Source: Gonatopus flavifemur (lineage: Eukaryota; Arthropoda; Insecta; Hymenoptera; Dryinidae). Taken from it: 64,000 nt of DNA. The stretch lies in NCBI GenBank assembly GCA_018340375.1, contig JAFFJZ010000025.1, positions 2,371,501-2,435,500 on the forward strand, read 5' to 3'. Shown piece after piece: positions 9,660-63,569 of the stretch. Below the pieces are notes generated by a model. The model saw only the letters and a list, made by a program, of their open reading frames with translations. It did no database searches and was not told the origin of the DNA. The position numbers were made by a program, and so were the translations under genes. Numbering within the stretch: position 1 is the stretch's first letter; each line of letters begins with the position of its first letter.

Positions 9660-9810
9660 TTTTTCAAATCACAATAGAATAGTTTATCGTCAACAGTTTA
9701 ACTCATCTGAAACATAGAGAATCAAAATAGCCAACTTGAAATTAACTGTTTAAAAAAGCAGAAAAATGGTTGATCATCCAAGTACTACAAAAATGTTACA
9801 CAATAAAAGA

Positions 9811-38667: not shown

Positions 38668-38793
38668 CTGCAAAAAACCTTTCTTATTAGCACTTAAATT
38701 ATTCACTTAATTTCAGGTTAGAATTGAAAGATTTTCAATACTTTATTATTTTCGAACAAGCTACACAAATCCACGGGCTATAGATTCTATATA

Positions 38794-44420: not shown

Positions 44421-44955
44421 CCCGCCAATCCCAGAGTGGGCCGAATTTCCTTTTTTTCTTAATTGAAAAAAAAATTTCAATTTCTCAAAATTTTTTTTTT
44501 AGAAACTTTGTTTATATGAAAAATAAATGCAAGTAAATGATTTTCTAATATGACATACTTAATTCAAAGTCCAAACTTGTAACTAGTGACTAGGAATCTA
44601 CGTTTGATACGATTGACATTCAATATTTTCAAGAATAATACAAAAAATAATTCATGTTATTTATCTTTGGTGCTTAAATATTTTACTTTAAATTTTTTCA
44701 TATTTTATTTGAAAATAAAATGAATTATTTGTTGTGTTATTATTGGAAATATTGAATTTCAATTGTATCAAACGTAGATTCCTAGTCACTAGTTATAAGT
44801 TTGGACTTGAATTATATATCTTATATCGAAATATCATTTACTTGCATTCATTTTTCATATAAACAAAGTTTCTAAAAAAAATGTTGAAAACAAAAAATTT
44901 TTTCTCCAATTCAAAAAAATAGAGAGAAAATTCGGCCCACTGTGGGATTGGCGGG
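44421..44955. mobile_element. 535-bp foldback element
   Basis: The ends CCCGCCAATCCCAGAGTGGG and CCCACTGTGGGATTGGCGGG pair. The arms of about 190 bp share TTTGTTTATATGAAAAAT and GACTAGGAATCTACGTTTGA with their complements. The spacer is AT-rich. Confidence 0.85.
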
Positions 44956-45190
44956 ATACTTTCATATCATGTCAACAAACCTAAAAAGTTTCATTATGAT
45001 TAAATAAGAATTTCTTTGAAAGAAAATTTCCTGACTGCGTCTTTTTGGCGTGTTCAATTGTATTGTCTTCCTCAAAAGTACTGTTCCCTGTCAAGTACTT
45101 TTCAATTCCCATAAAATAAAACTTGTGAACGTCAAATTCGGAAGTACTCAACAAGAGAAAGCACTTCAAATACAAAAAGTAATTGAGGCT

Positions 45191-45624
45191 TTATTTGTTA
45201 TAAATAAACAAATTGTTGTGGTATCAGGAAATTTTTGATTTCTGACACCAGGCTATATTTTTCTGTTTTTAGGGAAATAACCAAAACTAGGGTACATGCT
45301 TGTACTAGAATTTCAGGATGAAGGTTGAGGACGTTAATTGTTTTTCCCCTATACATGGGTAAATTCATTCTATTGATTGAATGCGACAATTCGATCGAAT
45401 TACTCAATTTGCAAGATTTAATTTTGAATTTTATTGATTAATATGTCAACACTTTGACTTATCGAAATTTTTGACATATGTACTTTTGGAAAAATTAAAA
45501 CAACGAAACATGTGAAATTACATGTAGCTAAATTATATTTTGATCATACTGATTGTATACCATACGAGAATGATACTCACAGAATACTGAGAACTTCGGT
45601 ATGATCAGATTTGCTAGGGTAGCT

Positions 45625-45670
<46 letters not shown>

Positions 45671-46319
45671 AACGAACTGGGCCTTGTAACCTTGTACACG
45701 GAAACACGCACACTGATTGTCTTGATTGGTTACACAACTATACGAATTTCACGTAAAAGTTCTTTTCATCGTTGATCGTAAGTTACACATAAAGAATACC
45801 CGTAGTGAATATTAAGATGGGTTTACGGAAATGGAAAACCCGATAAATAAGTTGGAAGATAAGGAATTCCTCTACACGTGAATTGTAAGGGGGAGTTTGA
45901 GTGGGAAATACACGTTAAAAGTTCGTGGTAAAACACCAGTCTTGACACACGCGGACTTCGAATACCGAGCGCAACTTCGCGACTTGAAGAGGCAAACGAG
46001 AGTGTGTAAACTTCTCTTCTTCTGCTTTCCTCGTCGACTTCGACCCCCCTTAGACTTACATCGATGGCATGTCGAAGTCGACGAAGTTCTCAGAATTAAA
46101 TAATGCAGGGCCAGCAGTTCGGACTTCTCTCACGTACCACCGTGAGACAAATCATGTAACTGGATCTGACCTGCGATAATTCGTGATAAACACTTTCGTA
46201 TCGTTTGATTTCAAGAAGTCATTGTATACGAAAGTAACCCGAGTTTACAAAGGCTCTTTGAAAATGAGATTTAGACAAAATTAAAACTTCATATTGTTAA
46301 ATTGTTACGGAACGTAACA
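45191..46319 (-). repeat. 3' LTR of the env-bearing gypsy-type element
   Basis: This direct repeat of 62449-63564 is about 1.13 kb. In the element's sense it begins TGTTACGTTCCGTAACA and ends ACAAATAA. The AGGCT target duplication follows outside at 45186-45190. A (TC)n run at about 45628-45669 is longer than in the other LTR, and scattered substitutions separate the two copies, so insertion is not very recent. A perfect 14-bp stem (TCGTCGACTTCGAC with its complement, 46031-46084) is conserved in both LTRs. Confidence 0.9.
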
Positions 46320-46335
46320 TCCGCCCCCCTTACTT
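46320..46335 (-). promoter_or_regulatory. Polypurine tract
   Basis: In element sense this reads AAGTAAGGGGGGCGGA directly before the 3' LTR. It is the expected primer for plus-strand DNA synthesis and confirms the minus-strand orientation. Confidence 0.9.
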
Positions 46336-46752
46336 AATCGTCGTCCCGACGATTCAATGACCCGACATCGACGTGATCCAACCATCGCGCGGATTAGGGG
46401 AAAACTGACATCAATTCGATTGATCAACTCACGCAATCGTGCGCATATCATTGACAACACAGATTCTTTTAGACATCACAATTACCATGTCATTAAATTC
46501 CAATGTAGAAGGAAACACGAGGAAGACGGCCAAAACAAAGGCAAATCGACGAGGTCAAAACAGGAGATACTCGAGGAGCACATTAAACTTATTCGGCGAT
46601 CATGGAATCACGTTTCAGTTAGAGAGAGAGTGTGAGAGGATCGCAAACCTGCAGAGACTCGCTTAAATCTACTTAACTCTAATTCCCTCAGAGAAGAGGA
46701 TCCATCCACATCCGGTGATATTTTTTCATTCAGTTGATTCACTTTTCTTCCC
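46336..46752. other. Untranslated region before the polypurine tract
   Basis: No frame is supported. A small AG-rich run (TTAGAGAGAGAGTGTGAGAG) lies at 46619. The region forms the 3' end of the element transcript. Confidence 0.5.
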
Positions 46753-46806
46753 ATGCATGGTGATGTAGGGTTTCCCTTCAGAAGCAAATGCCCTTCATCA
46801 TACATG
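46753..46806 (-). repeat. Structured repeat A (conserved core, covarying stems)
   Basis: The core is GTAGGGTTTCCCTTCAGAAG (plus strand). The outer arms CATGGTGATG and CATCATACATG pair, an inner hairpin AAGC/GCCCTT can form, and GGG-TTT-CCC closes the core. Copies B to E share the core, but their arms differ in sequence while still pairing. Confidence 0.7.
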
Positions 46807-46968
46807 ATTACTTCACTGGAGTAGATCAATCCTGTAGGACTTAAATCTCATAATGAAAACTAGCTAATGATAAGAGTGAAGACAGAAACAACGCGACTAA
46901 GGAAGACTGCACTCCATCGGACAAGCTTGTACAATGTGACAAGTGTTATTCGAGGGCTAAGGTCATCA

Positions 46969-47024
46969 TATGCATGATGATGTAGGGTTTTCCCTCAGAA
47001 TGCTGATGCTTTTTCATCGTGCAT
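46969..47024 (-). repeat. Structured repeat B
   Basis: The core is TGTAGGGTTTTCCCTCAGAA. The outer arms are TGCATGATG and CATCGTGCA, with one G-U type pair. The inner hairpin AATGC / GCTTT has one mismatch. Confidence 0.7.
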
Positions 47025-47130
47025 ACCTGCAGTAGAATGACACGATGATGTACTTTCTCCCTTCAAACAAATCGGAGGCTGTTGCTGCTGTATTGGTCCC
47101 CGCTTCCATAGTATCCGCTTCATCTCGTCG

Positions 47131-47190
47131 GGATCATGCTTAGCTGTAGGGTTTCCCCTCAGAACGCATAGCGTTTGCTCAGCCAGATCC
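47131..47190 (-). repeat. Structured repeat C
   Basis: The core is TGTAGGGTTTCCCCTCAG. The outer arms are GGATCATGCTTAGC and GCTCAGCCAGATCC (GGATC/GATCC exact, GCTTAGC/GCTCAGC with one mismatch). The inner hairpin AACGC-ATA-GCGTT is perfect. Confidence 0.75.
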
Positions 47191-47249
47191 AGAAAATCCA
47201 GCGTATCGTTGTGTTTTTCAGGTTTTTACCCAGTAATGCTCCCAGGAAC

Positions 47250-47302
47250 CACGCCTCGCTCTAGGGCTTCCCCTCAGAACGCTTACGCGCTTGCTTAGCG
47301 TG
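47250..47302 (-). repeat. Structured repeat D
   Basis: The core is TCTAGGGCTTCCCCTCAG. The outer arms are CACGCCTCGC and GCTTAGCGTG. The inner hairpin is around AACGC and GCGCTT. It ends 2 bp from the stop codon of the cargo frame (47304). Confidence 0.7.
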
Positions 47303-47303
47303 A

Positions 47304-49001
47304 TTAAGTTGATGCTGGAAACAATGGTGTTGTCATCCTCTCATAATAGATTTGGAGGTGATGATTTCTTCGGTCACGGCGGTGGCGAATGGCAGATGTT
47401 CCGCCGAGGAAGTTATTGAGCTGAATGCTCGGAGTCTTCCCTCGCAGCAGGCGGTAGGCGCAGTCGACAACTGGTCGACCCACCCCTCTACAGCCCTCTA
47501 AACTCAGGTGTTCGAGTCCAGGATTCTGTGCCAGCAATCCACATACATCCTCGTCGTTTATACGGGGATTATCCCTGCACTCCACCCTTCGAAGAGTGGT
47601 AAGCTGCTGCAAGAAATAGCCACCGACTCCCTCATGCAAATCACTGATTCCGAGAATCTGCAAATTCGTTAGACCCATGAGCGGATCCAAAGCCTCCTCC
47701 CCACGGATATTAGTGCATCCCGTGATATCCAACTCCTCCAGTACTTCCATTTCCAAACCAATTTCCAATATCAGGCTCGCCGTCACCTATCCGCAAAAGG
47801 TGATGTGGAACACCACCAGGTTATTATATAGTCCAGGCAGTGAAAGAGGTGCCGGTGACAATGGCAACTCTGCCCAGGCCCCCAATTCCCCCTGGTCCAT
47901 TTCCTCTTCCTCCGGGATCTCTGGTGGCGGAAGGGCGAAATCACAGCTGTGAAATTTCAAGGTCTGCAACATTCCATGGAGCTTAGCGTTCTTGATTGAA
48001 GCCTCCAGGATCAACTGATCCGTCATTTTGGGGCAATGTCCCATCTCGAGCGAATTCAAGCCAGCGATGTTGGTCAATAGAGCGGCAACGTTATCAGACC
48101 TCAGATAGCGGCAATGACAGAACCTCAATGAAACCAACTCTCGACCCATCCTCTTCAATGCCACCCCCGTGACATCATTCCTCTCCATCCAGACGGTGGT
48201 CAGTCCAGGATTCAGGACCAGCACCCGCTCCAACTCAGGATCCACAGGTCCCCGACAACGCCCCAACCTCAGCGAGGTCAGATTGGTTATTTTCGCTCCC
48301 AATATCTCCAAGAACGTTGGTCCTATGGTAGTACCTAGAGTATTAACCTCCCGAAGTCCAGGGCAACACTTGGCCACCATGGCCAGGGCTTGTGGTTTCA
48401 AATGCTCGGCCCTCCTTTCGTCGGTGATGGTAAGCACTTCAATATTCGGTGACCTACGTGCCAGCCATCTTATTTGGGAGGAAAGAACATTCCAGTTCTC
48501 ACTTCATCTCCAATCAGTTATGTCCAGTACTTTCTCGTCCAAATGAGTGTTCAAGCTTCCCTCTCGCCAATTACGATTCACCACCTCGACCCTCGCACGG
48601 TCCTTATAACTGAGGGCCCGAAAATTTCTTCTCAGGATCTCCATCGGCAGATCAGGCATCACCCCGGGCATACGGATATTCAAGCCAGCGGAAGGATCTG
48701 GTCCTGGGTTCTCTCGTCTGCTTCTCATCAATTTTTCATCGTGCCAGGAATCAGCACGCTTCACCAACAACTTCCGATTGTGAAGCCATATCGGAGCACT
48801 CTCAGCCCATCGCAAGGCCCGGGTAGTGTTTTCCGGTTCCTTGAAGGTCACAAATGCCGTGCCGCACCGTCCCTTCTTCCGCACCAACGCCGTCACAGGA
48901 TCGAATGCAGCGAACAATTCCCTCAAATGCTCCTCCTGAGTTTCCGGGGCCAGCCGGCCCACGAACAGCTTGAATTTAGAGCCCTGATCAGGCTGCTCCA
49001 T
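47304..49001 (-). pseudogene. RRM - F-box - leucine-rich repeat cargo ORF of the retroelement
   Basis: This single 565-codon frame lies between env and the 3' LTR, in element sense. Residues about 10-85 form an RNA-recognition motif: KLFVGRL (RNP2) and RCGTAFVTF (RNP1). Residues about 115-160 match an F-box: MPDLPMEILRRNFRALSYKD, then ARVEVVNRNW. The rest is a series of leucine-rich units of the F-box/LRR type (LTSLRLGRCRG; LVSLRFCHCRYL; LNSLEMGHCPKM; LEELDITGCTN; LEHLSLEGCRG). F-box proteins are substrate adaptors of SCF ubiquitin ligases, with LRRs choosing the target. Two stops break the frame, TGA at 48504-48506 and TAG at 47787-47789, each one C-to-T change from a sense codon. The region is markedly richer in G+C than the rest of the element, which suggests acquisition from another gene. 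Gypsy elements do not normally carry such a gene. Confidence 0.8.
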
Positions 49002-49124
49002 CTCGTGATTCTGTTCTATATTCCAAAACAGTCCAGCATTAGTTCGTGGATGAAACTAATTATTTTCTTAGATAACGATTACTTTAAAGGGAGAAGGAAA
49101 AAGAGAAAATTTTGAATTTTCGTA

Positions 49125-49170
49125 AGAACAGGGTTTACCCACAGAATGTCTCCGACATTTGCTGATTAAA
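49125..49170 (-). repeat. Structured repeat E
   Basis: The core is CAGGGTTTACCCACAG, followed by a perfect hairpin AATGTC-TCC-GACATT. It lies between the env stop (49241) and the cargo start (49001), so the repeats occur on both sides of the cargo frame. Confidence 0.7.
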
Positions 49171-49240
49171 ATAAAAAAAAAGACATAGAATGAAAAACAA
49201 AATTATTTGACGAAAGAAAATTTTTTTTTAGTATCAGTGA

Positions 49241-51178
49241 TTAATTTATTAAAGCTTGCTGTGGAGGTAATGGTCGCCTAGCCGCAGAGGATCCTTCCCC
49301 TCGCGATGTAGAAACCATTGGCACGTCTTCTGTTGATCTTTCGTCCCCCGTTCCCTTTCGAGAGCAGCACAGGCATAAAACCTTCCATAGCTGTGCCTGC
49401 AATGAGTTTTTGAACATATAAATCACGAATCCTAATATTGTACTGACTTGTACGACCATTCCCATTGAATTTATGAAGGACTGTCTTTGTTTTTCATGAC
49501 GATGACTCTTAATTTCCATCAGTTTTTGTTCCAATTCAAACAATGAACAACCATTGGTCTCCTCTTCATCAACCACACTCGGCGTGTTTATCAATTCACC
49601 GAACTTCTTGAATTCTACTAGTTCCGAAATCATGGGAGAAATAGATGTCACATTTAGAAACAACGTAGAGTTATAAAAATATTGTTCTGAATTTTGGAAC
49701 CTCCTGACGTTAACCAGCGTCAGTTGATGCGTTTCCACAATACAGTTTGAATCAAATTCCAAAAGTCCAGCACCTTGTATAGAAATGGGTTGTAAACGAT
49801 TCTCGGCACAAATCAGTTGAATGGTTTCCGGATCACTCAATGAATACAACCAAGTGTTGGATCGGTGTAATTTTTTCCAATACGGTTGATGATTCATGTT
49901 TAACTTAATGTTACAATAACGCAATTCACCCGGGTCTGGATTTGATAAGAGCATTATTTCGCAAGATTTTGAATTTACTACTTCCCTTAACGGGAGATTA
50001 GGGACACAGAAATGTATGCCGTGTTGATTAGAGCAGGAATTCAGAAATGTTTCATCGAATGTGAAGAACAAATTATTTCCGGCGTTAATTCCAAGATGGG
50101 TATTTTCTGGATTCATGTACGCCGATGATATGTGTCCAGAGAAGTTTTGCACTACAGGCCATGTGTGTAGTTGGTAAATTGTATAATCAGTGCTATCCGT
50201 TAGAGGAATGTGGATCGTAAAAATGAATTTTTCATCTATTCGCGAGGTAGTTGTAGTTGATATATTTGCTACCTCTTCAATGCTGATTTCCTGATGCGCG
50301 ACTGGTATTTTGTATTCTAATGTGGTCGAGTGTATTTCTTCTATTATTTTTTTCAATCTTGTACGATTCAGTAACGAAAAATGAACCCTGCCATTCTGTG
50401 CCATATGCAAAGCTCTTGCCAAATTTTCCCCATTAACCAGGAAATGATCCAAGAAACTTTTAATTTGATTTACATATTGATTCATAAGAAATTGCAAGTC
50501 GGCCAACTGTTGCAAGTGAGTCCACCCTTTCAATTTAGAGGAAATTTGATTCAATTTTTCACCATTTTTTTTAATGGCTGATTCATGGGAAGCAAGTACA
50601 TCGCGAAATTTATGCAAATCACTGGTCACTATGTGGGTATGTTCGTTAATTATTTGTGCAATTTGTCCTTGATCATTATACAGCTTATCGATTTCATCCT
50701 TAAAATACTCCGCGTCATCACTGTTCAATGTTCCGAATAGAGTTTTACTCATGGATCCAACGAAACCAAAAGGGGCCATTCTTTTAATGATTGTTCTCGG
50801 TAAGACCTTGCTCACTCGCGGTTTCGTCATTTTGCCGAGTAACACGGTTATTTCATCATACAGTTCTTGTGCTTGCTCGAATTTACTCTCTAAGTATTCT
50901 TTTCTAAGAGACACATCACATTCGAATGCTGGTTCATGTTTTAAGCACAGTTCGTAAGTGTGATTCATCATCTTTGGCTCAAAAGGAAATTGGAACTTGA
51001 ATTTTTCGATGTCCATTATTATAATCACTTTCCATTCCGCTCGCTGAAGTCGAACGCTGTACAGTTTCTCGAAATATAGTCCTGAGTTTGCACTCACAGT
51101 GGTGATCTTGTAATTGTCCTTACCACTCGCTCCCATCAAAAGAGTGAGAAGAAGAGAGATCGCTATCAGGTCCATCAT
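49241..51178 (-). CDS. env: Envelope fusion glycoprotein, baculovirus-F-like, 645 aa
   Basis: A membrane glycoprotein like those of insect errantiviruses. A signal peptide is visible at residues 1-19 (hydrophobic, ending MGASG). There are many N-x-S/T sites. A basic stretch ending IIKR near residue 140 is followed by a glycine/phenylalanine-rich segment (FGFVGSMSKTLFGTL) in the position of the F-protein cleavage site and fusion peptide. The basic site lacks the arginine of a perfect furin motif. A coiled-coil-prone region follows. A transmembrane helix (VVQVSTILGFVIYMF) lies about 60 residues from the end, then a cytoplasmic tail. The start overlaps the end of integrase by 59 nt, so expression probably requires splicing. 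The frame is uninterrupted. Confidence 0.9.
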   Translation of the reverse strand: MMDLIAISLLLTLLMGASGKDNYKITTVSANSGLYFEKLYSVRLQRAEWKVIIIMDIEKFKFQFPFEPKMMNHTYELCLKHEPAFECDVSLRKEYLESKFEQAQELYDEITVLLGKMTKPRVSKVLPRTIIKRMAPFGFVGSMSKTLFGTLNSDDAEYFKDEIDKLYNDQGQIAQIINEHTHIVTSDLHKFRDVLASHESAIKKNGEKLNQISSKLKGWTHLQQLADLQFLMNQYVNQIKSFLDHFLVNGENLARALHMAQNGRVHFSLLNRTRLKKIIEEIHSTTLEYKIPVAHQEISIEEVANISTTTTSRIDEKFIFTIHIPLTDSTDYTIYQLHTWPVVQNFSGHISSAYMNPENTHLGINAGNNLFFTFDETFLNSCSNQHGIHFCVPNLPLREVVNSKSCEIMLLSNPDPGELRYCNIKLNMNHQPYWKKLHRSNTWLYSLSDPETIQLICAENRLQPISIQGAGLLEFDSNCIVETHQLTLVNVRRFQNSEQYFYNSTLFLNVTSISPMISELVEFKKFGELINTPSVVDEEETNGCSLFELEQKLMEIKSHRHEKQRQSFINSMGMVVQVSTILGFVIYMFKNSLQAQLWKVLCLCCSRKGTGDERSTEDVPMVSTSRGEGSSAARRPLPPQQALIN

Positions 51179-52928
51179 TAGGGATCAGCGCCAACTTATC
51201 TACATGTTTTGTAAAAATCTTTCCATTAGTATCCCTCAAAATTACGTTTCCCTTTTCAAAAGTTCTAATTATTTTATAACGCCCTTTATATCGTGGCCCA
51301 AATTTTCCTCTCTTGGGTTCTATCAAAATTTTCACCAAGTCTCCTATCTTTCCTTTAGAAGGCCTTGTCTTCCTATCATAAATACGTTTGGATTTTCTTT
51401 TTGCAATTATCAAATTCTCTCCTGCTATAGTTTTCATTTCTATCAGTCGCGATATTAGGTCATGGGCATAAGAAGTATATGTTACTAATTTCTCTTCAGA
51501 GGGTAAAGATGTGGGAACTCTAGCTATTTTCCCAAAAACTAACTCAAATGGAGCGAAATTTGTAGCTTCGTGAACAGAGGTATTATATGAAAACATTGCA
51601 AATGGCACTATTTTGTCCCAGTCATCAAAATCGGACAAATAATGACTTATATATTCACTCAAAACTATATGACTTCTTTCCAGACTGCCATTGGTTTGCG
51701 GTCTATACCCGGAAGTGGATAATCGCTTGATTTTGAAGATTTTTGCTATTTGTGAGACCAATATATTTATAAAACTAGTCCCTCTGTCTGTTAAAATAAC
51801 TAAAGGAACACCAAAGTGTAATATCAAATGATTTATCATGGCATTAGCAACCGTTTCAGCTTTTATATTTGGTACGGGAACGGCTATGCAATACTTAGTC
51901 AAATTATCCTGCATGGTTAAAATATGTTTATTTCCACTAGGGGTGACCGGTAATTCGCCTACTGTATCTAGTGAAATTTTTGCAAATGAATCTATAGGGG
52001 TATCTGTTATAATCATTGGTTCACGGATTTTTGTTCGTATCAATTTCTGATTTTGACAACTATGGCATTTTCGAATAAAACTTTGAATATCGTTTCTCAA
52101 TCCAGGCCAATAGAATTTATCACGAACTCTACGATACGTTTTACTGACTCCTTTGTGACCTCCTATCAAACTTCCGTGGTATTCTGTAATGATACCCTCA
52201 CGGAGTTCCTCAGGTGGTACAGAGACTTTACCGAAACAGATGGTTTTTTCAATGTCACTGCCCTCAGAATCTTCAATTAATAACTCGATTAATGTACCTT
52301 GAGGGATGACTTCGATCAAGTCTTCATTCTTCGAGATTCTGAATTTCTCTATTCCCAAATCTATTAGTACTTTCTTTAGATTCTCTAATGTGAATATTAA
52401 ATTTTCCTCTGAAATTTTATCAAAACATCTGTCCTTCAACACCACACTAAAAATTCTGTATTTTCCCTCTTTGGTTACTAAGATCTGTCCCAGTTTTGGC
52501 TTAATTTCTTTTAATTTCTCTGAATCCAAAATTCCGGTGTCCGATAATAGTTTGCAAATTGGGCGAATTAATTCACAATCTGCAGAAATAAAATGAACCA
52601 AATTCGACTTTTGATACGTCAAATTTTCTCTTGAATATTTTATAAATGTCATATCTTGTAGAGCTCGTCCCAAATTCAATGGGCTTATAGGATCGATATC
52701 GGGTGAGATCGATTCTTTAATCGGTATTCCTACAGAATTTTGATTGACATTCGAATTGTTTGGTATTATTCTTCGCGGTTTCGTAGATGATTTCACATTT
52801 TGACCTTGACTTATTGGAAAAGGTGTGGACAAAGCTAAAGGTTTTGAAATAAACGACGGGGTATATATAGTTTGGCTTTGTGGCGGATTTTGTATTACAG
52901 AACTTTCTATTGCATTGGTTCCTACCAA
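51120..52928 (-). pseudogene. pol: pol: integrase portion, 602 codons
   Basis: About residues 250-300 hold the HHCC zinc domain (EYHGSLIGGHKG, CHSCQNQ). The catalytic core follows, with the three acidic positions in SLDTVGEL, LTDRGTSF and QTNGSLERS. The C-terminus has the GPRYKGRYKI-type GPF/Y-like block. About 200 residues before the zinc domain are unusual low-complexity and helical sequence. The frame is offset from the RT/RNase H frame, so a single-nucleotide indel near 52930 separates them. The fragment itself has no stop. Confidence 0.85.
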
Positions 52929-55548
52929 TTTCTAATTCATCATTTTCCGGAATTTCTTTTAACGTAGTCGGTTGAGTAATTTTATCTTTGAATTTTGCTT
53001 CCATCCTATCCTTAGCATTTTTTACCCTCTCCGTCAAACTTTCTATCCTTCTATCCATTTCCGAATCATCGTCACTTTCAGGGTCATAGGGATCAGCTTC
53101 GAATAATATCTCTTTAGTTAAATCATCTAATGATCCTCCCTCAGAAACACTACCTGGTATTTGAATTCTTATTTCTTGCTCGTCTTCTTCTTCCTCTTCA
53201 AAGAGATGACTCCCGTTCTGTAGTGATTGATTGAAATTTTCAAAGTAGTGATTGATTGAAATTTTCAAAGACCTTTGTAATTCATTAAGATCGAAGGGTA
53301 GATTCTTTACATTAATATCATCCTTTTGTACGAAAACTTCATCATCACTATCCTCTTTTTCAGTTAATTCAATCATAATTTCTGTATTAGGCAAGGATAG
53401 CGAAATCCTTTCCTCTACTTGTACTTCCTGTACTTCCTCGACTTCGGGGTGTTTCCCATCCTTCAGGACCTCAGGCATCTGCGGTTCTCCGAGACTCGGT
53501 AACACACTTTTTCGTCGTCTATGCACAGGTCGTGGAACTTTTTCTGCCTCCGATTCTTCTTCGGAAGAAGTGTCGGTCGGTTTTTCTATTCCTGAACTAG
53601 GAGGAGTAGGCTTTATGACTTCTGGTTTTTGAGTTCGAGATTGTGCACGTGTTCGACTAGCTATCGAACTCGTATTAAGATGGATAGGTGGTTTGGGTTT
53701 CTTTTGAGTTCCTACTTTAGAAGGAGAAGGCGCGCTATGAATTCTTCTACGTGTTTCTGTTTCTCTTAATCTTTCCGCCTGTTTCGATTTCAACTTATCC
53801 GAGTTTGCCTCAGGTGATTTCTCTTTAGATTTCTCTGTTTTATCAGCTTTCGCGGATATTCCGAATTTCTTTTTCAACATCATTATTTTCCCTGACTCAA
53901 TTTCTGAATTTTCTGCGTCGCTCTTTGTAGAAGAGCTTTCTTCCGTTGAGGTATCTAAATTTATTTCGTCTGAGCTATATACATTCTCTTCAGTTATGGG
54001 ATTTCGTGATAATGCATCGGCATTTAGATTTAATTTTCCGGGTTTATGTATGAAATTATAATCGTAGTCACGTAGTTTTAATCTCCAACGAACAAGACGT
54101 TGACCAGGGTCTTTTATTGAATCAATCCATTTCAAAGGTTTGTGATCGCTGAACAAAGTGAATTTACGTCCGAATAAATATGGTCTGAAATGAACTACTG
54201 CATATAATACTGCTAAACATTCTTTTTCCGTGGTTGAATAATTTTGTTCAGGTTTAGTTAAAGTTCGAGATCAATATGCAATAGGTAGATCGTAGCCATC
54301 AATATTTAGACTCAATACCGCGCCTATCGCGAAATCAGAAGCATCGGTAGTTAGTGTGAATTCCTTATCAAAATTTGGATACTGTAAAATTGGTTTCTTG
54401 CATAGTGCTTTTCGTAATTTCTCGAAACTCGCAGTATGTTCTTTTGTCCAAGCGAATTTAGCATTTTTCTTTAGTAGTTCTGTCAAAGGTTTTGCTATTT
54501 TCGCGAAATTTTTAATAAATCTACGATAATAACCAGCTAAACCTGAAAATTGCCGAATATTTTTCTGATTTTGAGGTCGAGGAAATTTTTTTACTGCTTC
54601 GATTTTTTGTGGATCTGGTTTTACACCATCCTGTGTAACAATATGGCCTAAATACACTACTTCTTTTCTTAAAAATTGACATTTATCGGGCTGTAGACTA
54701 ATTTGAGCCTCACCTAGTCTTTTAAATAATCTGTGAATTTTTCGTTTATGTTCCTCTAAAGTTTTTGCAAAAATTACTATATCGTCCAAATAAACAAATA
54801 ATTCTACACCCTGCAATCCTCGTAAAACGGTATCCATCATCCTTTGAAAAGTTGCAGGAGCATTTTTTAAACCCTCAGGCATCCTAATAAATTCATAATG
54901 GGCATGGGGTGTAGTAAATGCAGTTTTGTGCTTATCCTTCGGATCCATGAGAATTTGTTGAAAACCACTAGCAAGATCTATGACCGTAAAATATTTAGCT
55001 TCTCCCAACTGATCAAGAATTTCATTTATATTTGGGAGTGGATATGCATCTCCTATTGTCTGTGAGTTTAATTTCCTAAAATCTATTACCATTCTCCATC
55101 GTGGATTACCCTGGGAGTCTGGCCTTTACGGAACTATCCAAATGGGTGGGTTATAAGGTGAGGTCGATGGTCTTATGATGTTATTTTTCAATTTCACTTG
55201 AATTTGACGTTCTATTTATTCTTTATGTACAGGTGGGAATCTATATTGTCTAGTATTTACAGGTTCATTACCGTCAAAAATTCTATGGTTACTATGTGGG
55301 ATGTATCGTAAGTTATCACCAGGGAAAAGAAAATGGAACGGGTACTCTTCTATTATATCTACAACGTGTTTAATTTCCTCTGGATTCAAATCTTTGAAAT
55401 TAAGTTTGTTTAATATCAAATTAGATCTGTCTACTCTGTCTTGAATCGTTAAATTCTTCCCAATTTCAGAATCCGAAGATTCATTTTCTAAATGGTGATA
55501 TTCGAAAGGAATTATTTCTTGTGGGGGAATTTCGATTTCAACATCCTT
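52929..55548 (-). pseudogene. pol: pol: RT, RNase H and long acidic linker, interrupted
   Basis: RT motifs are visible: MVIDFRKLN, FTVIDLASGFQQI, the catalytic FVYLDDIVIF and YLGHIV. RNase H has LTTDASDFAIGAVLS, TEKECLAV and ALSRNP. After RNase H comes a linker of roughly 350 residues dominated by E, D, S, K and P (FEEEEEDEQEIRIQ; EESEAEKVPRPVHRRRKS), much longer than in most gypsy elements. In-frame stops are at 55549, 55216, about 55126 and 54271, and a frameshift lies near 52930. The product as encoded cannot be full length. Confidence 0.85.
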
Positions 55549-56148
55549 TTATAATGTATTTATTGCTAACACATGGCAAACACCCTCATCATTTGTGGAA
55601 ACTACTGCTTCACCTATATAAATTCCCTCGAGTGTCTCTAACTTTGGTAGATAGCCCTCTCGTAAATCCGAATTTATAATGTCTATTGGAATCGGCTGAC
55701 GCATTCGAGCTTGTAAACATAAAACCTTCGACTTCAAATTTCTTCTATCGTCTGTTTTCCTTTCATTTTCACCAAGAAAACGCATCGGCTTTACAGGGTC
55801 ACTTTGTGTAACTAAAGTATCATGTGCAAACGACATTTCTGCCTGTTCCTGTTTCAAATATTCTTTACCCAAAATTCCTTCACAATTTAACGGGAATGAA
55901 GATCTTACTACATGAAATTCCACTGGTTGATCTAAGAGTCTAACGATAGTTGTGCCTATTGTATTTACTTTGTATGGGGTGATCCCTACTATTGAAACAG
56001 AATCGCTGAGAATAACAACCGTATTTTTATTTAATGCGTTTAGTTTTATTACGTTTATATCAGCACCCGTATCTATTAAAAATCTTGCTTTGCCGGCCTG
56101 TAACTGTTCTGAAAACATTTCTACGCTAGGAGATTCAAACTTTTCCAC
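55549..56148 (-). CDS. pol: pol: aspartic protease portion
   Basis: The retroviral protease signature FLIDTGADINVIK is near residues 23-35, with the conserved EGILGKEYLK block (about residue 110) following. The frame overlaps the end of gag by 28 nt in the -1 phase, around TGGAAAAG, the usual arrangement for -1 frameshift expression of Gag-Pol. The frame ends at TAA (55549), one change from CAA, where pol should continue toward RT. Confidence 0.8.
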   Translation of the reverse strand: MEKFESPSVEMFSEQLQAGKARFLIDTGADINVIKLNALNKNTVVILSDSVSIVGITPYKVNTIGTTIVRLLDQPVEFHVVRSSFPLNCEGILGKEYLKQEQAEMSFAHDTLVTQSDPVKPMRFLGENERKTDDRRNLKSKVLCLQARMRQPIPIDIINSDLREGYLPKLETLEGIYIGEAVVSTNDEGVCHVLAINTL

Positions 56149-57503
56149 AGTTGATTCTCGGTCTCCAGATATTTCACTGCTAGACGCTCTGATTTTTGTT
56201 GACTCGTCATCGCGTCCGCATGTCGAGTCTTTGACCTGTTTAAATGATCATTATCCGAAATTTTGCATTCACTAAATTTCCTATTGAAGCTCGGACTTTC
56301 TCTACCTTTATCTTTTGAATTCGTATTTTCTGTACGTCCTGATTGAAATGTTCTATGGGGAGAATTTTCTCTACTACTTTCTCTGGATGAAAGTTGTCTG
56401 TTAGGATGATAATTTCTTCTATCAACACTTTGAAACTGGGAAAATCTGTTTTTATCATGACGTTCTTGATTTAGTGAATCACTTTTCCTATCATTTTTAT
56501 GATCATTTTTCTCATATGGTTGATATGGTGAATGTGGCATATATGGGTTTGGCATGTATGGTGTTGGATACGGATAATATGGCATTTGACATGGCATCGG
56601 TGGTGGGTAATAAGGATAAGGATTTGTCATGGATGTTGATGGGTGCCTGGGTGCATCGGAACTATGAGAGTTGTGAGGTCTTTTCAAAATTCCTGTTGGA
56701 TTTGGATATGAAGCGGATGGTTCAGGACTAGGTGTTCTAGATCTTTCATCAGAGACAGCAAAATTTCGATAACTTCTGAGACTTCTATCCTGACTATAAT
56801 TCCGAAAACGCGAAAAATCATGCCCGTGATCATCAGAGAACGAAACTCTTGCGGGTTGCCTTCCCGGTATAATTCCCGTTTTCATTTTTATCTCTGTTCT
56901 CACCGCAATTTTATGTGCTTCATCTAGGTCCTTCGGATCTCGCACATCTACTGCTCTAGCTAGTTCATCCGGCAATCCTCTCAAGGAAGACTCAAGTGCA
57001 CATTCCTGGATCGGCTTCAACATTTGCTCCACGTTAGCCTGGGCATCATTGTATTTTTCCTCTAATGCGACTTTTGCTCCGCTGAGCAACAAATTCAACC
57101 TATCATAGAAATCGCTCACGGACTCTCCGTGTCTCATTCTAATTGTTTCTATTTCATGGTGATAGTATGGATAACTCTTTCCTGGCGCGAAACGAGTTTT
57201 TAAATGTTTAATCAAATTATCTACAGTTGCGAAAGTTTTCCCGAATGTACTATCTCTTGCGCTACCCTGCAGTCTACCCAGAACCGCTCTAACGTACGCT
57301 CCTTCTGATGCAGGAGGCATATGAGCTGCTCCATTTTGGATATCTTGGAGAAAATTTTTCAAGGGAATATTTTTCCCATCGAAATATGGCACGTTTAAAA
57401 TACTCTGCTGCAGGGACATGCATTCAGCGATCGAATGCATCATTGCGTCAGAGGCGTTCAACTGAGTCCTAGAATGACTTCCACCGTCTTCACCGTTCGT
57501 CAT
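56121..57503 (-). CDS. gag: Gag structural protein, 460 aa
   Basis: This is the capsid precursor of the element. The retrotransposon gag domain covers about residues 30-220 (VPYFDGKNIPLKNFLQDI, RFAPGKSYPYYHHEIETIRM, ESVSDFYDRLNLLL, SLRGLPDELARAV). The C-terminal half is rich in S, R, P and Y (RSRTPSPEP; PYYPPPMPCQMPYYPYP) and lacks a CCHC zinc knuckle, as in errantiviruses, where a basic tail binds RNA. The frame is open from an ATG with no break. Confidence 0.85.
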   Translation of the reverse strand: MTNGEDGGSHSRTQLNASDAMMHSIAECMSLQQSILNVPYFDGKNIPLKNFLQDIQNGAAHMPPASEGAYVRAVLGRLQGSARDSTFGKTFATVDNLIKHLKTRFAPGKSYPYYHHEIETIRMRHGESVSDFYDRLNLLLSGAKVALEEKYNDAQANVEQMLKPIQECALESSLRGLPDELARAVDVRDPKDLDEAHKIAVRTEIKMKTGIIPGRQPARVSFSDDHGHDFSRFRNYSQDRSLRSYRNFAVSDERSRTPSPEPSASYPNPTGILKRPHNSHSSDAPRHPSTSMTNPYPYYPPPMPCQMPYYPYPTPYMPNPYMPHSPYQPYEKNDHKNDRKSDSLNQERHDKNRFSQFQSVDRRNYHPNRQLSSRESSRENSPHRTFQSGRTENTNSKDKGRESPSFNRKFSECKISDNDHLNRSKTRHADAMTSQQKSERLAVKYLETENQLWKSLNLLA

Positions 57504-59014
57504 TTTATACGACTTTATCTAACTACTCAAAAAAAAAACAAAGAAAATCCGATCGTAATTATTTATGAAGTTTATATGATTGTGGATTGTTTGAGACCAA
57601 TTATTGGTTCCTATTCCTATTTTCACACTCCAAGAGAAAGGAAAAAAAAACAAATGTTTCAAATCCTTCCTAATCGTTTTCATATGTTAGTCAATTTTAC
57701 CTGTACATAGTGACACATAAGCCCTGTTACCTTAGTCAATTTTCAATTTCGAGCTTTTGATCTTCCGTCTCTTCCTCTTCAAAGAAAGTTTGAATTCTTG
57801 GTTTCAAACTTTTCAATTCTATCGCACACCGTTTTAGAGGTCACCTCCGGATGCTTTGAAGCATTACGGTATCGTGTGATAGAATATTCATCTCTTAAAT
57901 TTTTCCTTCTATAATCGAAAATTATGAATTTTTCCTTTTCTGAGGATATCTTTTTGGAGAGAAAATCAATCACCTCGATTTTATAGTAGTGAACGATATC
58001 TACAGGAACACGAATTATATCCAGTGGCGCGATTATACCATGTATACGAATTTTCAACAAAGTCCCAGAAGATAGTTATTAATTCAGTTTCATGGTTTAT
58101 CCAATCATATATAATGCATAGGTATACACACAGTGGATGAGTACATCAATATTCGATGTTTGTCTAGTCACGCTTGAAATTCATCGAACCTGTAAGGTTT
58201 TTACGTTAATTCACACTTTCTATCAACTGCACAATCGCTTGAGAGATCACCTCCAGATGCTTTGAAGCATTACGACTGTACAACCGAGAAAAAGGAATTC
58301 GATATTCATTCAATATTTCGAAAAATTCCAACGATCATTCACGTCCAAAACAATGTTGAATACACAAAGGCTACCTTTGTGTATCTTAGCAAAACTTCGA
58401 TTTCCCTATGTTCTCTGTTCACTCAAATTGTGAGGTTCTCAAAGAAACATGTGGCGTTGTGTGACGTATAACACACATACAGATATGTACATCAGGATTC
58501 AGAATCAGAACATGAACTCCAGAGATGCTATTCCTCCATTTTAATCGCAAGAAAAATTTTCAGAGTTGAAATTCGTTGAAATCACATATAGGAAATTCCC
58601 GAGGTCATGCACATAAACGGAATATATATATATACATAACAATGCATTGAGTGGCGACGCGTTCGATTAAATTTCATTCCTTTTGAGAAATCCAATATAA
58701 AACTTGTGTCGAAAATCTTTATGATTTACTGAAGTCATCACCACTAATCTTTAGAATAGAAACCTCAAAGTTGCACAAAGACATGAGGAAAAAATTCCGA
58801 AAACTTCATTCAAAACAAAACTCGATTACGCGGACTTTTAATGTTTTGACTCTTATCTTCATTCAAAATCCCAAAAATCATTGTACTTCGCGAACTTGAA
58901 AACGTGTAACTATCAAAATTTCTGAAGTATTCGCTGATATGAAAAATATATACGATGTTCTCATGTGAGACCGAGCTGTTTATTATAACCGAAAACGTGT
59001 GAACACTATACATA
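57504..59014. other. Element leader, right of gag
   Basis: A direct repeat, CACCTCCGGATGCTTTGAAG at 57842 and CACCTCCAGATGCTTTGAAG at 58246, is the only structure seen besides a 93-codon frame of doubtful reality (57779-58060, minus strand). The leader is unusually long for a gypsy element. Confidence 0.5.
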
Positions 59015-59016
59015 TA

Positions 59017-61048
59017 CAGGGTGGGGCATTTAAAGTGTCGCGGGCGTTTTTTCCAAAAATAAAATGAGATACGAGAAAATTTTTCGGACAAAAATTGTGA
59101 GGTATCGAGGGGGACATCCGATGGTGGCCTTGGCTTTGACCTCAAATCTCATCTTCAAGGGCATTCCGAGGTCAACTCTTGTTTTTTAAATAGGATCTTA
59201 TTCTTTTTACTGCAGATTTGGATTCTAGGTCAAAAACCAAGAAACTTTTGTCTGAACCATTTTCCTGAAATCCGCAAAGATGGCGCTCTAATCGATATTG
59301 TTCCATACTGAATCTGACATTAGAATAACTCGAAAACGAAGGGTCTTGGAGGAGAATGTTTCGGACAAAAGTTGTCTGATTCCAAGGGGGACCCCTTGAA
59401 CTGAAACGGAGGTGATGGGGTATAACAGACAAAACACAACACATTTCAATCGTCTACATCACTTGGATAATTTTAATGCAGTAGATGCTCAAAATGATGG
59501 CCTCCGACTTCAATACACATTTCAAAACGTTTTACAAAAGATTGCTGAACTCGTGCTAAAATATCTTCATTGATGCTCGCGCATGCATTGATGATTCGTT
59601 GACGCATATTCTCAGGTGTAGTCGGTGCTTGTTGATGAACTGTATCTTTTATGTATCCCCTTGAAAAAAAATCTGGAGAAGTAAGATCCGGAGAACGGGC
59701 AGGCCAATGAACTGGTCCACGACGTCCTATCCATCGTCCAGGATAATCTCTGTCCAATATTTCTCGAGCTGTGACTGCATAATGGGATGGACAACCATCG
59801 TGTTGATACCACATATTCAATCGTTCCTGAATAGGTATGTCTTCAAGTAATGTTGGAAGTACTTGATCTAAGAAATGTCTGTACTTCTCTCCATTCAGCG
59901 TATCTGCAATGAAGTACGGTCCAATTACTCGAGATCGAAAAATACCACACCAAACATTCATAGCCCATTGTCTTTGATGCTCTACTTGACGTAACCATCT
60001 TGGATTTTCTGTCGCCCAGTAATGCATATTATGTCGATTTACTTGACCATGATTGGTGAACGTCGACTCATCAGAAAATAATATGTTGATGAAGTTGTTA
60101 TTGTGCATTCGCGCTAGACCCCATCGACAAAACTGTACACGATTTCCGAAATCATCACCGTGAAGGTCTTGATGCAAACAAATGTGATACGGATGGAATT
60201 TGTGACGTTTCAGTATTCGAAGAACACTTCTTCGAGAAATTCCCGAATGGAGTTCAATTCCACGAGAGCTCACGTGTGGATTATTGGCTACTGCAGCTAG
60301 TATATTAACTTCCGCATTTTCTCCGCTAACAGTTCTCATTCGATGTCGTTTTTCCCTTGTAACACTTCCCGTTTCTGAGAATAATTTTGTAATGCGTTGA
60401 AAATACCTAATGGATGGCGTTGTTCTTTCAGGAAATCGTTCTGCATACAAGTCATATGCTTTTCTGGGGTTCTGATGCACTTTACCGTAAATGTAGATCA
60501 TATCGATCTTTTCAGAAACCGTGTATCGGATATCTATGATTTTCAATTTGTCATAAACCAAGTAATAATCAAATGTAACTGACAAACTGACTTTCAAAAT
60601 CGTGAATTTTCACTGAACCCCGTCGTTTGTTTACATCGCGTGAGCTCTGAATGGTGGTAATGTAGACGATTGAAATGTGTTGTGTATTGACAACTTTTGT
60701 ACGAAACATTCTTTTGCAAGACCCTTCGTTTTCGAGTTATCCGAATGTCAGATTCAAAATGCAACAATATCGATTAGAGCGCCATTTTTGCGGATTTCAG
60801 GAAAATGGTTCAGACAAAAGTTTCTTGGTTTTTGACCTAGAATCCAAATCTGCAGTAAAAAATATGAGATGCTATTTAGAAAACAAGAGTTGATCTCAGA
60901 ATGCCCTTGAAGATGAGATTTGAGGTCAAAGCCAAGGCCACCATCGGATGTCCCCCTCGGTACCCTACAGCTTTTGTCCGAAAAATTTTCTCGTATCTCA
61001 CTTTATTTTTGGAAGAAACGCCCGCGACACTTTAAATGCCCCACCCTG
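59017..61048 (-). mobile_element. Complete DD41D element nested in the LTR element leader
   Basis: It begins CAGGGTGGGGCATTTAAAG, ends with the complement, and is flanked by TA (59015-59016 and 61049-61050). The terminal repeats are about 390-430 bp (shared GGGGGACATCCGATGGTGGC; AGATGGCGCTCTAATCGAT-like sequence). The copy at 38794-39829 is nearly identical over its whole length, suggesting recent activity. Confidence 0.95.
59473..60597 (-). CDS. DD41D Tc1/mariner transposase, intact, 374 aa
   Basis: This transposase is predicted to bind the terminal repeats in the nucleus and move the element by cut and paste. The N-terminal helix-turn-helix region has KAYDLYAERFPERTTPS and SGISRRSVLRILKRHKFHPY. 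The three catalytic aspartates are in LFSDESTF, YQHDGCPSHY and SPDLTSPDFF, with 41 residues between the second and third. There is no stop or frameshift, and an ATG opens the frame. The length is normal for DD41D transposases of the rosa-like group. Confidence 0.9.
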   Translation of the reverse strand: MKVSLSVTFDYYLVYDKLKIIDIRYTVSEKIDMIYIYGKVHQNPRKAYDLYAERFPERTTPSIRYFQRITKLFSETGSVTREKRHRMRTVSGENAEVNILAAVANNPHVSSRGIELHSGISRRSVLRILKRHKFHPYHICLHQDLHGDDFGNRVQFCRWGLARMHNNNFINILFSDESTFTNHGQVNRHNMHYWATENPRWLRQVEHQRQWAMNVWCGIFRSRVIGPYFIADTLNGEKYRHFLDQVLPTLLEDIPIQERLNMWYQHDGCPSHYAVTAREILDRDYPGRWIGRRGPVHWPARSPDLTSPDFFSRGYIKDTVHQQAPTTPENMRQRIINACASINEDILARVQQSFVKRFEMCIEVGGHHFEHLLH

Positions 61049-61050
61049 TA

Positions 61051-62428
61051 TATACTAAATTCAATGCGTTACAAGTAATTCCGAACGTGTTTCATGGTCA
61101 ACACAAATCGAAACTTCTCTGAATGTACTGGTATCGAGGAATCGATCATATAACTTTAGAGGATATTTTACGCTTGAACTTTTACGATTGTATATTGAAA
61201 CTATATATATAAAAAAAAACCAATTAAATCCTGATTGAAGTACTTCTTGGTCAGGACAGAATTTTATAAAAGAATTTTACAAATAATAACTTGAAATCAG
61301 GTGAAATGTTCGCATAACTCGAACTTCAAACTCAGGTTCCAGCATCGATTCTCACACTTCATAGAAGAGAAAGAAATCACTTTAAATTCCCCAAAGCGAA
61401 CTTAATTACGAGATTTTACCAAAAACCTATACATATATGAAGGCAATTTCATTCGAATCTGAACTCCAAACGCTCTATCTTTATTGAAATAACTGAATCG
61501 TCAATCTTTATGTGTATAGACAATTTCATATATGTATATCTTCGTATAGTGTTAGTTTTTCCAACTTTACTTAGTCTGGCACAAGTTTACAAAAATTATT
61601 CTGACACAATATCAGCACAAAACAAATTATTAGAGTTCAAATTCGTTCGAAAAAGAAAATATATACATAAAGTTACCGAAATTATCCAAGTAGATGAAAA
61701 ATATATACAAAATTTCGATATAACATCCTGAAAATTTTCACATGCAAAATTTTATAAAATTTTATCAAGATCGTCAATGGTCAGTATTATAATACCTGAA
61801 TGACATGCAATTCTGAATCTGGTTGAATCAAATAAAATCCAACATGAATCGTCGAATCACTGACAACAATTCTGGTACTGATGAATTCCAGTACAACTCT
61901 ATCAATTGCTGTTGTAGATTTTCCACACTGATGCTAGAATTCATTGAACAACTTAATTTCGTCAAAATTAGTAAAATGTACACGAGTCAGATTTTCAAAG
62001 AGAATATTTCATATTCAAGTTTTTGAAAAAGATTATTGGGTTGAAATTAATTCTTGCCTCGAATCTCAACTAATCGCAATTTCAAAATCTTTCACGACTT
62101 GGCTGAGTATCTTAGGATTTCAAGCCTTCATCACTCATTTTGACACTGTACGATGGAAAATTAAATTCACAATCATTCCATGATCAATGCATGCACTGGA
62201 ACCTTCACGAGAAAGCACATATATAGGTATTCCAAGCAATGATTTTTTTATGTCTGAAAATTGAAGTGAATTAAAAATTCATACGATGGAGAGAATTGAA
62301 GATTTATTTCTTTATACACCAGGGAAGAATTTTGAATTTTGAAACCCCTTCAAAAATAGAGAAAATTCCTGAAATTTGTTTTTGATCATTCTCGAATAAA
62401 CAATAGAAAGAATTTCTGGGATAACAAT
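61051..62428. other. Element leader, between the nested DD41D and the primer site
   Basis: AT-rich and without any credible frame. No repeat is recognised. Confidence 0.5.
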
Positions 62429-62446
62429 ATCCCACTTCTGACACCA
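62429..62446 (-). promoter_or_regulatory. Primer-binding site, tRNA-Leu type
   Basis: In element sense TGGTGTCAGAAGTGGGAT lies 2 nt inside the 5' LTR. It would pair with a tRNA ending TTCTGACACCA, which fits tRNA-Leu acceptor sequences as I know them. Confidence 0.75.
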
Positions 62447-62448
62447 CT

Positions 62449-63564
62449 TTATTTGTTATAAATAAACAAATTGTTGTGGTATCAGAAAATTTTTGATTTC
62501 TGACACCAGGCTATTTTTTTCTGTTTTTAGGGAAATAACCAAAACTAGGGTACATGCTTGTACTAGAATTTCAGGACGGAGGTTGAGGACGTTGATTGTT
62601 TTTCCCCTATACAGGGATGGAATTCATTCTATTGATTGAATGCGACAATTCGATCGAATTACTCGATTTGCAAGATTTGATTTTGAATTTTATTGATCAA
62701 TATGTCAACACTTTGACTTATCGAAATTTTTGACATATGTACTTTTGGAAAAATTAAGACAACACAACATGTGAAATTACATGTAGCTAAATTATATTTT
62801 GATCATACTGATTGTATACCAGACGAGAATGATACTCACAGAATACTGAAAACTTGGGTATGATCAGATTTGCTGGGGTAGCTTCTCTATCTCTCTCTCT
62901 CTCTCTCTCTTTTTCAACGAACTGGGCCTTGTATCCTTGTACACGGAAACACGCACACTGATTGTCTTGATTGGTTACACAACTATACGAATTTCACGTA
63001 AAAGTTCTTTTCATCGTTGATCGTAAGTTACACATAAAGAATACCCGTAGTGAATATTGAGATGGGTTTACGGAAATGTAAAACCCGATAAATAAGTTGG
63101 AAGATAAGGAATTCCTCTACACGTGAATTGTAAGGGGGAGTTTGAGTGGAAAATACACGTTAAAAGTTCGTGGTAAAACACCAGTCTTGACACACGCGGA
63201 CTTCGAATACCGAGCGCAACTTCGCGACTTGAAGAGGCAAACGAGAGAGTGTAAACTTCTCTTCTTCTGCTTTCCTCGTCGACTTCGACCCCCCTTAGAC
63301 TTACATCGATGGCATGTCGAAGTCGACGAAGTTCTCAGAATTAAATAATGCAGGGCCAGCAGTTCGGACTTCTCTCACGTACCACCGTGGGACAAATCAT
63401 GTAACTGGATCTGGCCTGCGATAATTCGTGATAAACACTTTCGTATCGTTTGATTTCAAGAAGTCATTGTATACGAAAGTAACCCGAGTTTACAAAGGCT
63501 CTTTGAAAATAAGATTTAGACAAAATTAAGACTTCATATTGTTAAATTGTTACGGAACGTAACA
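62449..63564 (-). repeat. 5' LTR of the env-bearing gypsy-type element
   Basis: A 1116-bp direct partner of 45191-46319, differing by scattered substitutions and a shorter (TC)n run. It should contain the promoter and transcript start. The 14-bp stem is at 63276-63328. Outside it, AGGCT at 63565-63569 is the second half of the target duplication. Confidence 0.9.
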
Positions 63565-63569
63565 AGGCT

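What the first reader, a model, noticed from the sequence alone, without database searches (positions are those of the whole stretch)
47304..49001. A gypsy-type retroelement carries an RRM - F-box - LRR gene downstream of env
Directly seen: one frame, on the same strand as gag-pol-env, lying between the env stop and the polypurine tract, with RNP1/RNP2 motifs, an F-box-like segment and leucine-rich repeats. Known: F-box proteins recruit targets to SCF ubiquitin ligases, and some plant viruses use F-box proteins to destroy silencing factors. Inference: the element captured a host gene that may have tethered a ubiquitin ligase to element RNA or to an RNA-bound host defence factor. I know of no gypsy or errantivirus element with this gene.
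Basis: partly seen in the sequence, partly recalled or inferred. Interest (0 to 1): 0.92.

Follow-up and report, generated by a model that had tools for sequence, protein, structure and literature searches.

The report
Insect retroviruses carrying an F-box gene
A large, old group of retrovirus-like elements in one genome, probably an insect's, carries after the envelope gene an extra gene that resembles proteins that bind RNA and mark other proteins for destruction, and this gene has been kept by selection, which I have not seen reported for this kind of element.

Summary
A Ty3/gypsy-type provirus with LTRs, target duplication, PBS, PPT and baculovirus-F-type env lies on the minus strand, 45190-63564. 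Between env and PPT, 49001-47304 encodes RRM, F-box and leucine-rich repeats in one frame, broken here by two stops. In the window's own genome the RRM/F-box part matches 55 places. Of 25 copies whose surroundings I read, 24 have env upstream, at gene identities from 100% to 38%. The best 20 form nine groups; all keep the LRR part, and dN/dS between groups is 0.13-0.30. LTR pairs were found in 4 of 10 other copies checked. In relatives the F-box passes Pfam's cut-off. So this is an old, intronless, selected fourth gene of a lineage of env-bearing elements, in a v-src-like position. Its work as an RNA-guided SCF adaptor is inference. The host parent was not found; how many related elements lack the gene is untested, as the genome search answered 2 of 26 requests.

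The parts
63565..63568 (.). Target site duplication at the 5' LTR side (AGGC on + strand)
   Evidence: Read; the same 4 bases stand at 45186-45189. LTR end taken one base inside the BLAST end (shared base)
62448..63564 (-). 5' LTR
   Evidence: 96.2% identical to the 3' LTR; 28 substitutions in 1117 sites, 2 gap events
62430..62446 (-). Primer binding site TGGTGTCAGAAGTGGGA, one base after the 5' LTR; tRNA-Leu-like by recall
   Evidence: tRNA assignment not tested
56121..57518 (-). gag-like ORF, 465 aa, open
   Evidence: no Pfam match at E 0.01; named by position
55549..56247 (-). Aspartyl protease piece
   Evidence: RVP E 9.8e-6
54271..55125 (-). Reverse transcriptase and first part of RNase H
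   Evidence: RVT_1 E 1.1e-36
52717..54270 (-). Rest of RNase H, then a long acidic linker
   Evidence: RT_RNaseH E 7.7e-23
51120..52931 (-). Integrase ORF, in another frame than the previous piece
   Evidence: Integrase_H2C2 E 6.6e-22; rve E 1.4e-7, 32.2 bits against cut-off 32.6
49241..51184 (-). env, open, 647 aa, baculovirus F-protein type
   Evidence: Baculo_F E 7.2e-38
49161..49181 (-). Best splice-acceptor-like site of the element
   Evidence: Rank 1 of 1131 AG sites, hand-made score; the gap holds the best site of the locus in 14 of 20 copies
49129..49146 (-). Diverged motif copy upstream of the gene
   Evidence: the same 18 letters at this place in L010-L013
49081..49101 (-). Second-best splice-acceptor-like site of the element
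   Evidence: Rank 2 of 1131
48504..49001 (-). Accessory gene, piece 1: ATG, RRM, F-box, ends in an in-frame TGA (searches used 48504-49055)
   Evidence: 55 matches in the own genome
47787..48503 (-). Accessory gene, piece 2: five motif-matched Cys-type LRRs, ends in an in-frame TAG
   Evidence: present in 20 of 20 loci
47304..47786 (-). Accessory gene, piece 3: three more motif-matched LRRs, ends in TAA
   Evidence: present in 20 of 20 loci; weak in the PDB (best E 0.08, internalin)
46766..47279 (-). Four copies of TTCTGAGGGGAAACCCTA (47262-47279, 47147-47164, 46983-47000, 46766-46783)
46320..46331 (-). Polypurine tract AAGGGGGGCGGA abutting the 3' LTR
   Evidence: AAGGGGGG at the same place in L014, L016, L022
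45190..46319 (-). 3' LTR
   Evidence: holds three AATAAA/ATTAAA signals
45186..45189 (.). Target site duplication at the 3' LTR side (AGGC)
59012..61054 (.). Later nested transposon in the 5' leader; not part of the finding
   Evidence: Inverted repeats 93%; DUF4817 helix-turn-helix E 2.3e-14 in 59473-60609

Best explanation
A lineage of env-bearing Ty3/gypsy-type elements has long carried a fourth gene between env and the polypurine tract, coding for an F-box/LRR protein with an N-terminal RRM. Shown: anatomy, domains, multi-copy spread with env across nine groups of the 20 best copies, separate LTR-bounded insertions, purifying selection between groups, near-neutral change among the youngest copies. 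Inferred: it came from a host mRNA (no intron in the 20 loci read, own composition here); it is expressed from its own spliced mRNA with an acceptor in the env-gene gap and is polyadenylated in the LTR; the F-box joins SCF, and the LRRs and RRM bring an RNA-bound host protein to ubiquitination, which helps the element. Placement and separate mRNA would work like v-src in Rous sarcoma virus. The window's copy is dead in this gene and in pol.
For: 55 places in the own genome match piece 1 (61 candidates, all scored). env upstream in 24 of 25 copies examined: 17 of 20 loci within 1.5 kb, two more of those 20 further up, and 5 of 5 extra copies of 38-43% gene identity. LRR pieces in 20 of 20. LTR pairs of 1.0-2.0 kb in 4 of 10 copies checked, 92.7-99.1% alike, two with 4-bp duplications of their own (AGAT, ATAT; my reading). 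dN/dS (Nei-Gojobori): L009-L012 against L013 0.28-0.30 (dS 0.24-0.25), L009-L013 against L018 0.13-0.15 (dS 1.4-1.5), L020-L024 against L027 0.125-0.147 (dS 0.81-0.87). Gene and env protein distances correlate, r 0.89, 133 pairs, 0 of 2000 permutations. F-box over cut-off in relatives. Acceptor-like site best in the gap in 14 of 20 loci, 4 of 9 groups.
Against: Within the youngest groups dN/dS is near 1 (L009-L012: 0.63-1.19 at dS 0.02; L020-L024: 0.42-0.72; L017-L019 0.70), while env in L009-L012 is still at 0.39-0.49: either few changes and decay after insertion, or the gene has lately lost constraint in this group. With one copy per group the gene-env correlation falls to 0.58 (18 pairs), L026 standing out. 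5 of 9 groups do not have the best acceptor in the gap (L027 rank 14). RRM scores drop under the cut-off in distant copies. L019 has no env within about 4 kb. No RNA data, no host parent, no binding data.
Confidence: 0.65

Rival explanations
1. The protein serves element RNA: the RRM binds the element's own transcript and steers export, packaging or translation, while the F-box tunes the protein's level or removes a competing RNA-binding protein.
For: RRM kept beside the F-box in the copies that match piece 1 over both parts; motif array beside the gene in the window, 5 matches against 0.03 expected; the 3' region folds somewhat better than 20 shuffles (z -2.3).
Against: The motif array is confined: at up to 3 mismatches it shows in L009-L013 and singly in L014, L016 and L018, not in the other loci (loci reach only part of the 3' region). 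The GGG/CCC core does not vary and single copies fold weakly (z -2.3, -2.1, -1.4, -0.6, 0.15).
Confidence: 0.15
2. The target is another element or virus: the adaptor removes Gag or Env of competing elements, or cell-surface receptors, so that it works in superinfection or competition and not against host silencing.
For: Many related elements share the genome (10345 RT candidates of all kinds); gene divergence broadly follows env.
Against: No direct evidence; an RRM is not needed for such targets.
Confidence: 0.12
3. Passenger or nested retrocopy private to this copy.
For: Two stops in the window's copy; own GC content.
Against: Refuted by the other copies with env and LTRs and by dN/dS between groups; in the window also no poly(A), no own signal, no shared 10-mer at the flanks (one shared 9-mer against 1.3 and nine 8-mers against 5.3 in shuffles).
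Confidence: 0.02

Closest known systems
Rous sarcoma virus v-src with its flanking direct repeats
   Same: Host-derived gene downstream of env (recalled); src has its own singly spliced mRNA, and two direct repeats flank it and serve RNA export (PMC9143442, passages read).
   Different: Retroviridae of birds, a kinase. Here a Ty3/gypsy-type lineage, an RRM-F-box-LRR gene, kept over deep divergence; expression untested.
Insect endogenous retroviruses (gypsy, ZAM and relatives)
   Same: gag-pol-env order, F-type envelope; Env from a spliced subgenomic transcript in Drosophila (PMC12992720, passages read).
   Different: A fourth, host-like gene is not mentioned in the passages and listings I saw; the words 'accessory', 'additional ORF' and 'host-derived' do not occur in PMC12992720.
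FBXL proteins (FBXL17, FBXL2, SKP2) of SCF ubiquitin ligases
   Same: F-box then Cys-type LRRs; FBXL17 best PDB match of piece 2; 12 of the 15 Foldseek hits at E 0.001 or better come from F-box LRR entries (TM-scores by query only 0.33-0.54).
   Different: An N-terminal RRM; I recall no FBXL protein with one (recall, not a search).
F-box genes that captured a transposase domain
   Same: Link between F-box genes and mobile elements (PMC12062965; search listing and start of abstract only).
   Different: There the gene took a transposon domain; here the element holds the gene.

Membership tests
Env-bearing Ty3/gypsy-type LTR element | Paired LTRs with short target duplication | tested here: met
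   Window; 4 of 10 other copies with LTR pairs, two with duplications
Env-bearing Ty3/gypsy-type LTR element | PBS after 5' LTR and PPT before 3' LTR | tested here: met
   PPT
Env-bearing Ty3/gypsy-type LTR element | Order protease, RT, RNase H, integrase, env | tested here: met
   window only; gag by position
Errantivirus proper (gypsy/ZAM clade) | RT within the errantivirus clade | not tested
   No named reference set fetched; no tree built
Errantivirus proper (gypsy/ZAM clade) | Baculovirus-F-type envelope | tested here: met
   Baculo_F E 7.2e-38
FBXL (F-box/LRR) protein | F-box | tested here: met
   Under cut-off in the window, over cut-off in relatives: F-box-like 4 of 6, PF00646 5 of 6
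FBXL (F-box/LRR) protein | LRRs after the F-box | tested here: met
FBXL (F-box/LRR) protein | SKP1/CUL1 binding | not testable with these tools
   Needs an experiment
RRM protein | RRM with RNP1 and RNP2 | tested here: met
   RRM_1 over cut-off in window and L010, just under in 4 others, not listed in L025, whose best PDB match is still an RRM (E 1.8e-6); RNP1 degenerate
Retrovirus with transduced host gene (v-src-like) | Foreign gene inside the provirus, carried through separate insertions | tested here: met
Retrovirus with transduced host gene (v-src-like) | Identified host parent gene | tested here: inconclusive
   55 matches in the own genome; 24 of the 25 read have env upstream; 30 not read
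Retrovirus with transduced host gene (v-src-like) | Own spliced mRNA | tested here: inconclusive
   Acceptor-like sites; no RNA data
Processed retrocopy inserted by a LINE | Poly(A) tail and target duplication of its own | tested here: not met

The most novel reading that the evidence does not exclude
An old lineage of insect retroviruses carries its own SCF adaptor. The RRM guides it to RNA-bound silencing proteins (piRNA or siRNA RNPs) and the F-box has them ubiquitinated, a standing counter-defence against small-RNA immunity, encoded in a v-src-like fourth gene and held by selection across many element families.
Probability: 0.22. Interest if true: 0.95.

Novelty: new variant of a known kind. 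Interest (0 to 1): 0.87.

Why it matters
Vertebrate retroviruses are the textbook carriers of host-derived genes. Here a gypsy-type lineage holds one that is old, widespread in the genome and selected, so it most likely did something for the element. Its build (RNA binding plus ubiquitin-ligase recruitment) makes a direct answer to small-RNA defence testable in insects.

Tried and rejected
Led nowhere: the genome search answered 2 of 26 requests. Unanswered were 8 with the RT family, 4 with piece 1, 1 with the 3' LTR as DNA and 11 with env. So I have no count of related env elements without the gene, nor of LTRs. Protein database searches of piece 2, piece 1 and env: nothing at E 1e-3. Viral contigs with piece 1, env, RT, piece 2, IN, genome contigs with piece 1, phage records with piece 1: no confirmed relative. 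Piece 3 was sent to none of these. As env and IN also find nothing, these collections seem not to hold insect elements. Rfam: 0 matches in 45100-63700. NCBIfam: RRM families far under cut-off. The model of piece 1 is poor (pLDDT 41.5) and was not searched; that of piece 2 is weak (56.2). One search failed (wrong program option) and was redone. Donor-like sites in the gap scored low.

Considered and rejected: chance ORF; host gene split by one LTR; private passenger or LINE retrocopy; the repeat motif as a proven RNA element.

Full report
The element. Two direct repeats, 45189-46319 and 62447-63564, are 96.2% identical. On the minus strand they begin TGTTACG; AGGC (+ strand) stands outside both ends, a primer binding site follows the 5' LTR and a polypurine tract abuts the 3' LTR. 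Between them lie, all on the minus strand, a gag-like ORF (named by position), protease, RT, RNase H, integrase and a 647-aa open env of the baculovirus F type. pol is interrupted: RNase H is split by a stop, 55126-55560 has 3 stops in its best frame, boundaries included, and integrase lies in another frame. A later transposon sits in the leader. That the host is an insect is my inference from the envelope type and the transposons.

The extra gene. From ATG 49001 to TAA 47304 one frame holds 3 stops (TGA 48506, TAG 47789, terminal TAA); the two other frames of the strand hold 36 and 29. Piece 1 carries an RRM (E 1.8e-9) and an F-box-like segment (sub-threshold here), piece 3 an LRR match (sub-threshold). 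Piece 2 has no Pfam match, but FBXL17 is its best PDB match (E 1e-4); its weak model (pLDDT 56) finds FBXL2, COI1, SKP2, TIR1 and SKP2 entries first, 12 of 15 hits at E 0.001 or better being F-box LRR entries. LRR motifs: five in piece 2 (0 of 1000 shuffles reach this), three in piece 3 (2 of 1000). GC3 is 0.58 against 0.39 env, 0.33 gag, 0.23 RT, 0.29 IN.

Other copies. The own genome (636 Mb, 402 contigs, unnamed) gives 55 matches to piece 1, the window's own included: three more at 93-94% identity, one at 80%, six at 56-64%, the rest from 58% (a part match) down to 32%. In all 20 loci fetched, window included, pieces 2 and 3 follow. env lies within 1.5 kb upstream in 17 of 20, and further up for L018 and L028; only L019 shows none within about 4 kb. 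Five further copies of 38-43% gene identity all have env upstream, at 40-56% identity to the window's env. So env precedes the gene in 24 of 25 copies read; 30 matches were not read. Four copies without a stop in the matched part show an open frame of 536-583 aa: the coding sequence has no introns there.

Separate insertions. In ten copies I compared a 4.2-kb stretch beyond the gene with a 9.5-kb stretch upstream. LTR pairs appear in L012 (96.3%), L014 (99.1%), L016 (98.2%) and L022 (92.7%); L015 gave a 119-bp pair only; L010, L011, L013, L017 and L020 none, my guess of the place or decay being possible reasons. The PPT core AAGGGGGG stands beside the 3' LTR in L014, L016 and L022.

Selection. 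By protein distance under 15% the 20 loci form nine groups. Of 190 pairs, 35 had dS below 1.5 and were listed. Between groups or deep within them dN/dS is low: L009-L012 against L013 0.28-0.30, L009-L013 against L018 0.13-0.15, L020-L024 against L027 0.125-0.147; env in the L013 and L027 comparisons is 0.31-0.36 and 0.22-0.27. Among close copies it is higher: L009-L012 0.63-1.19, L014-L016 0.73-0.89 (third pair undefined), L020-L024 0.42-0.72, L017-L019 0.70, L026-L028 0.39. This is what selection before and decay after insertion give, though env in L009-L012 stays at 0.39-0.49, so a recent loss of constraint in that group is possible. Gene and env distances correlate (r 0.887, 133 pairs of 17 loci, 0 of 2000 permutations); with one copy a group r is 0.58 over 18 pairs, some with short env overlaps. 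So the gene has mostly travelled with env, with possible exchanges. In the window's copy, drift since insertion predicts 0.66 stops; 694 of 5000 runs gave two or more.

Expression. In the window the two best acceptor-like sites of 1131 lie in the env-gene gap, about 1e-4 by chance; I had seen the first by eye, and the score is hand-made. In the loci the gap (about 410 nt of 3.5 kb) holds the best site in 14 of 20, 4 of 9 groups; ranks elsewhere are 2 (L018), 3 (L026), 4 (L028), 5 (L017), 7 (L025), 14 (L027). Drosophila elements make Env from a spliced transcript (PMC12992720, passages).

Repeats. TTCTGAGGGGAAACCCTA occurs five times in the window at up to 3 mismatches (0.03 expected), four after the gene and one before it. 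The upstream copy recurs only in L010-L013; downstream matches occur there and in L014, L016 and L018. It is thus a feature of part of the lineage. RSV has two direct repeats around src that serve RNA export (PMC9143442, passages); the likeness is a lead only.

Mechanism. Most likely (inferred) the F-box binds SKP1, the LRRs a target and the RRM an RNA or RNP, so that an RNA-bound host factor is ubiquitinated. The F-box is well supported by relatives, the RRM less so in distant ones, where residues of RNP1 have changed. Which factor is open.

Literature. Nine searches on this question and one on RSV in an open-access library; I saw listings, and passages of PMC13172572, PMC12992720, PMC5408687 and PMC9143442. 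What I saw mentions no such gene. Subscription papers are mostly missing there.

Noticed in passing
window 52717-54270 (minus): Between RNase H and integrase the frame carries a linker of several hundred residues, acidic and low in complexity, unusual for Ty3/gypsy pol (recall).
   Followed up: no
L020-L024 against L027: Gene and env seem to differ in age: gene protein distance 0.19 against 0.46 for the short env overlap of L020-L027, a hint of exchange between elements or of a fast env end.
   Followed up: partly
window 57830-57868 and 58236-58274: Two 39-nt repeats, 90% alike, in the 5' leader, each with a GATGCTTTGAAGCAT palindrome.
   Followed up: no
window 59012-61054, 38789-39832: Transposon with 365-bp inverted repeats and an open 378-aa transposase-like frame nested in the leader; a half copy 98.9% alike lies at 38789.
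   Followed up: partly
window 44421-44955: Long nested inverted repeat (arms 96, 75 and 40 nt) near the outer end of the 3' LTR, MITE-like.
   Followed up: no
window 7311-9668 (minus): Open 785-aa frame that looks by eye like a transposase-derived protein; only a sub-threshold zinc-finger match.
   Followed up: partly
window 15526-17854: Pair of 453-bp inverted repeats, 95% alike, around a frame that looks by eye like a transposase fragment.
   Followed up: no
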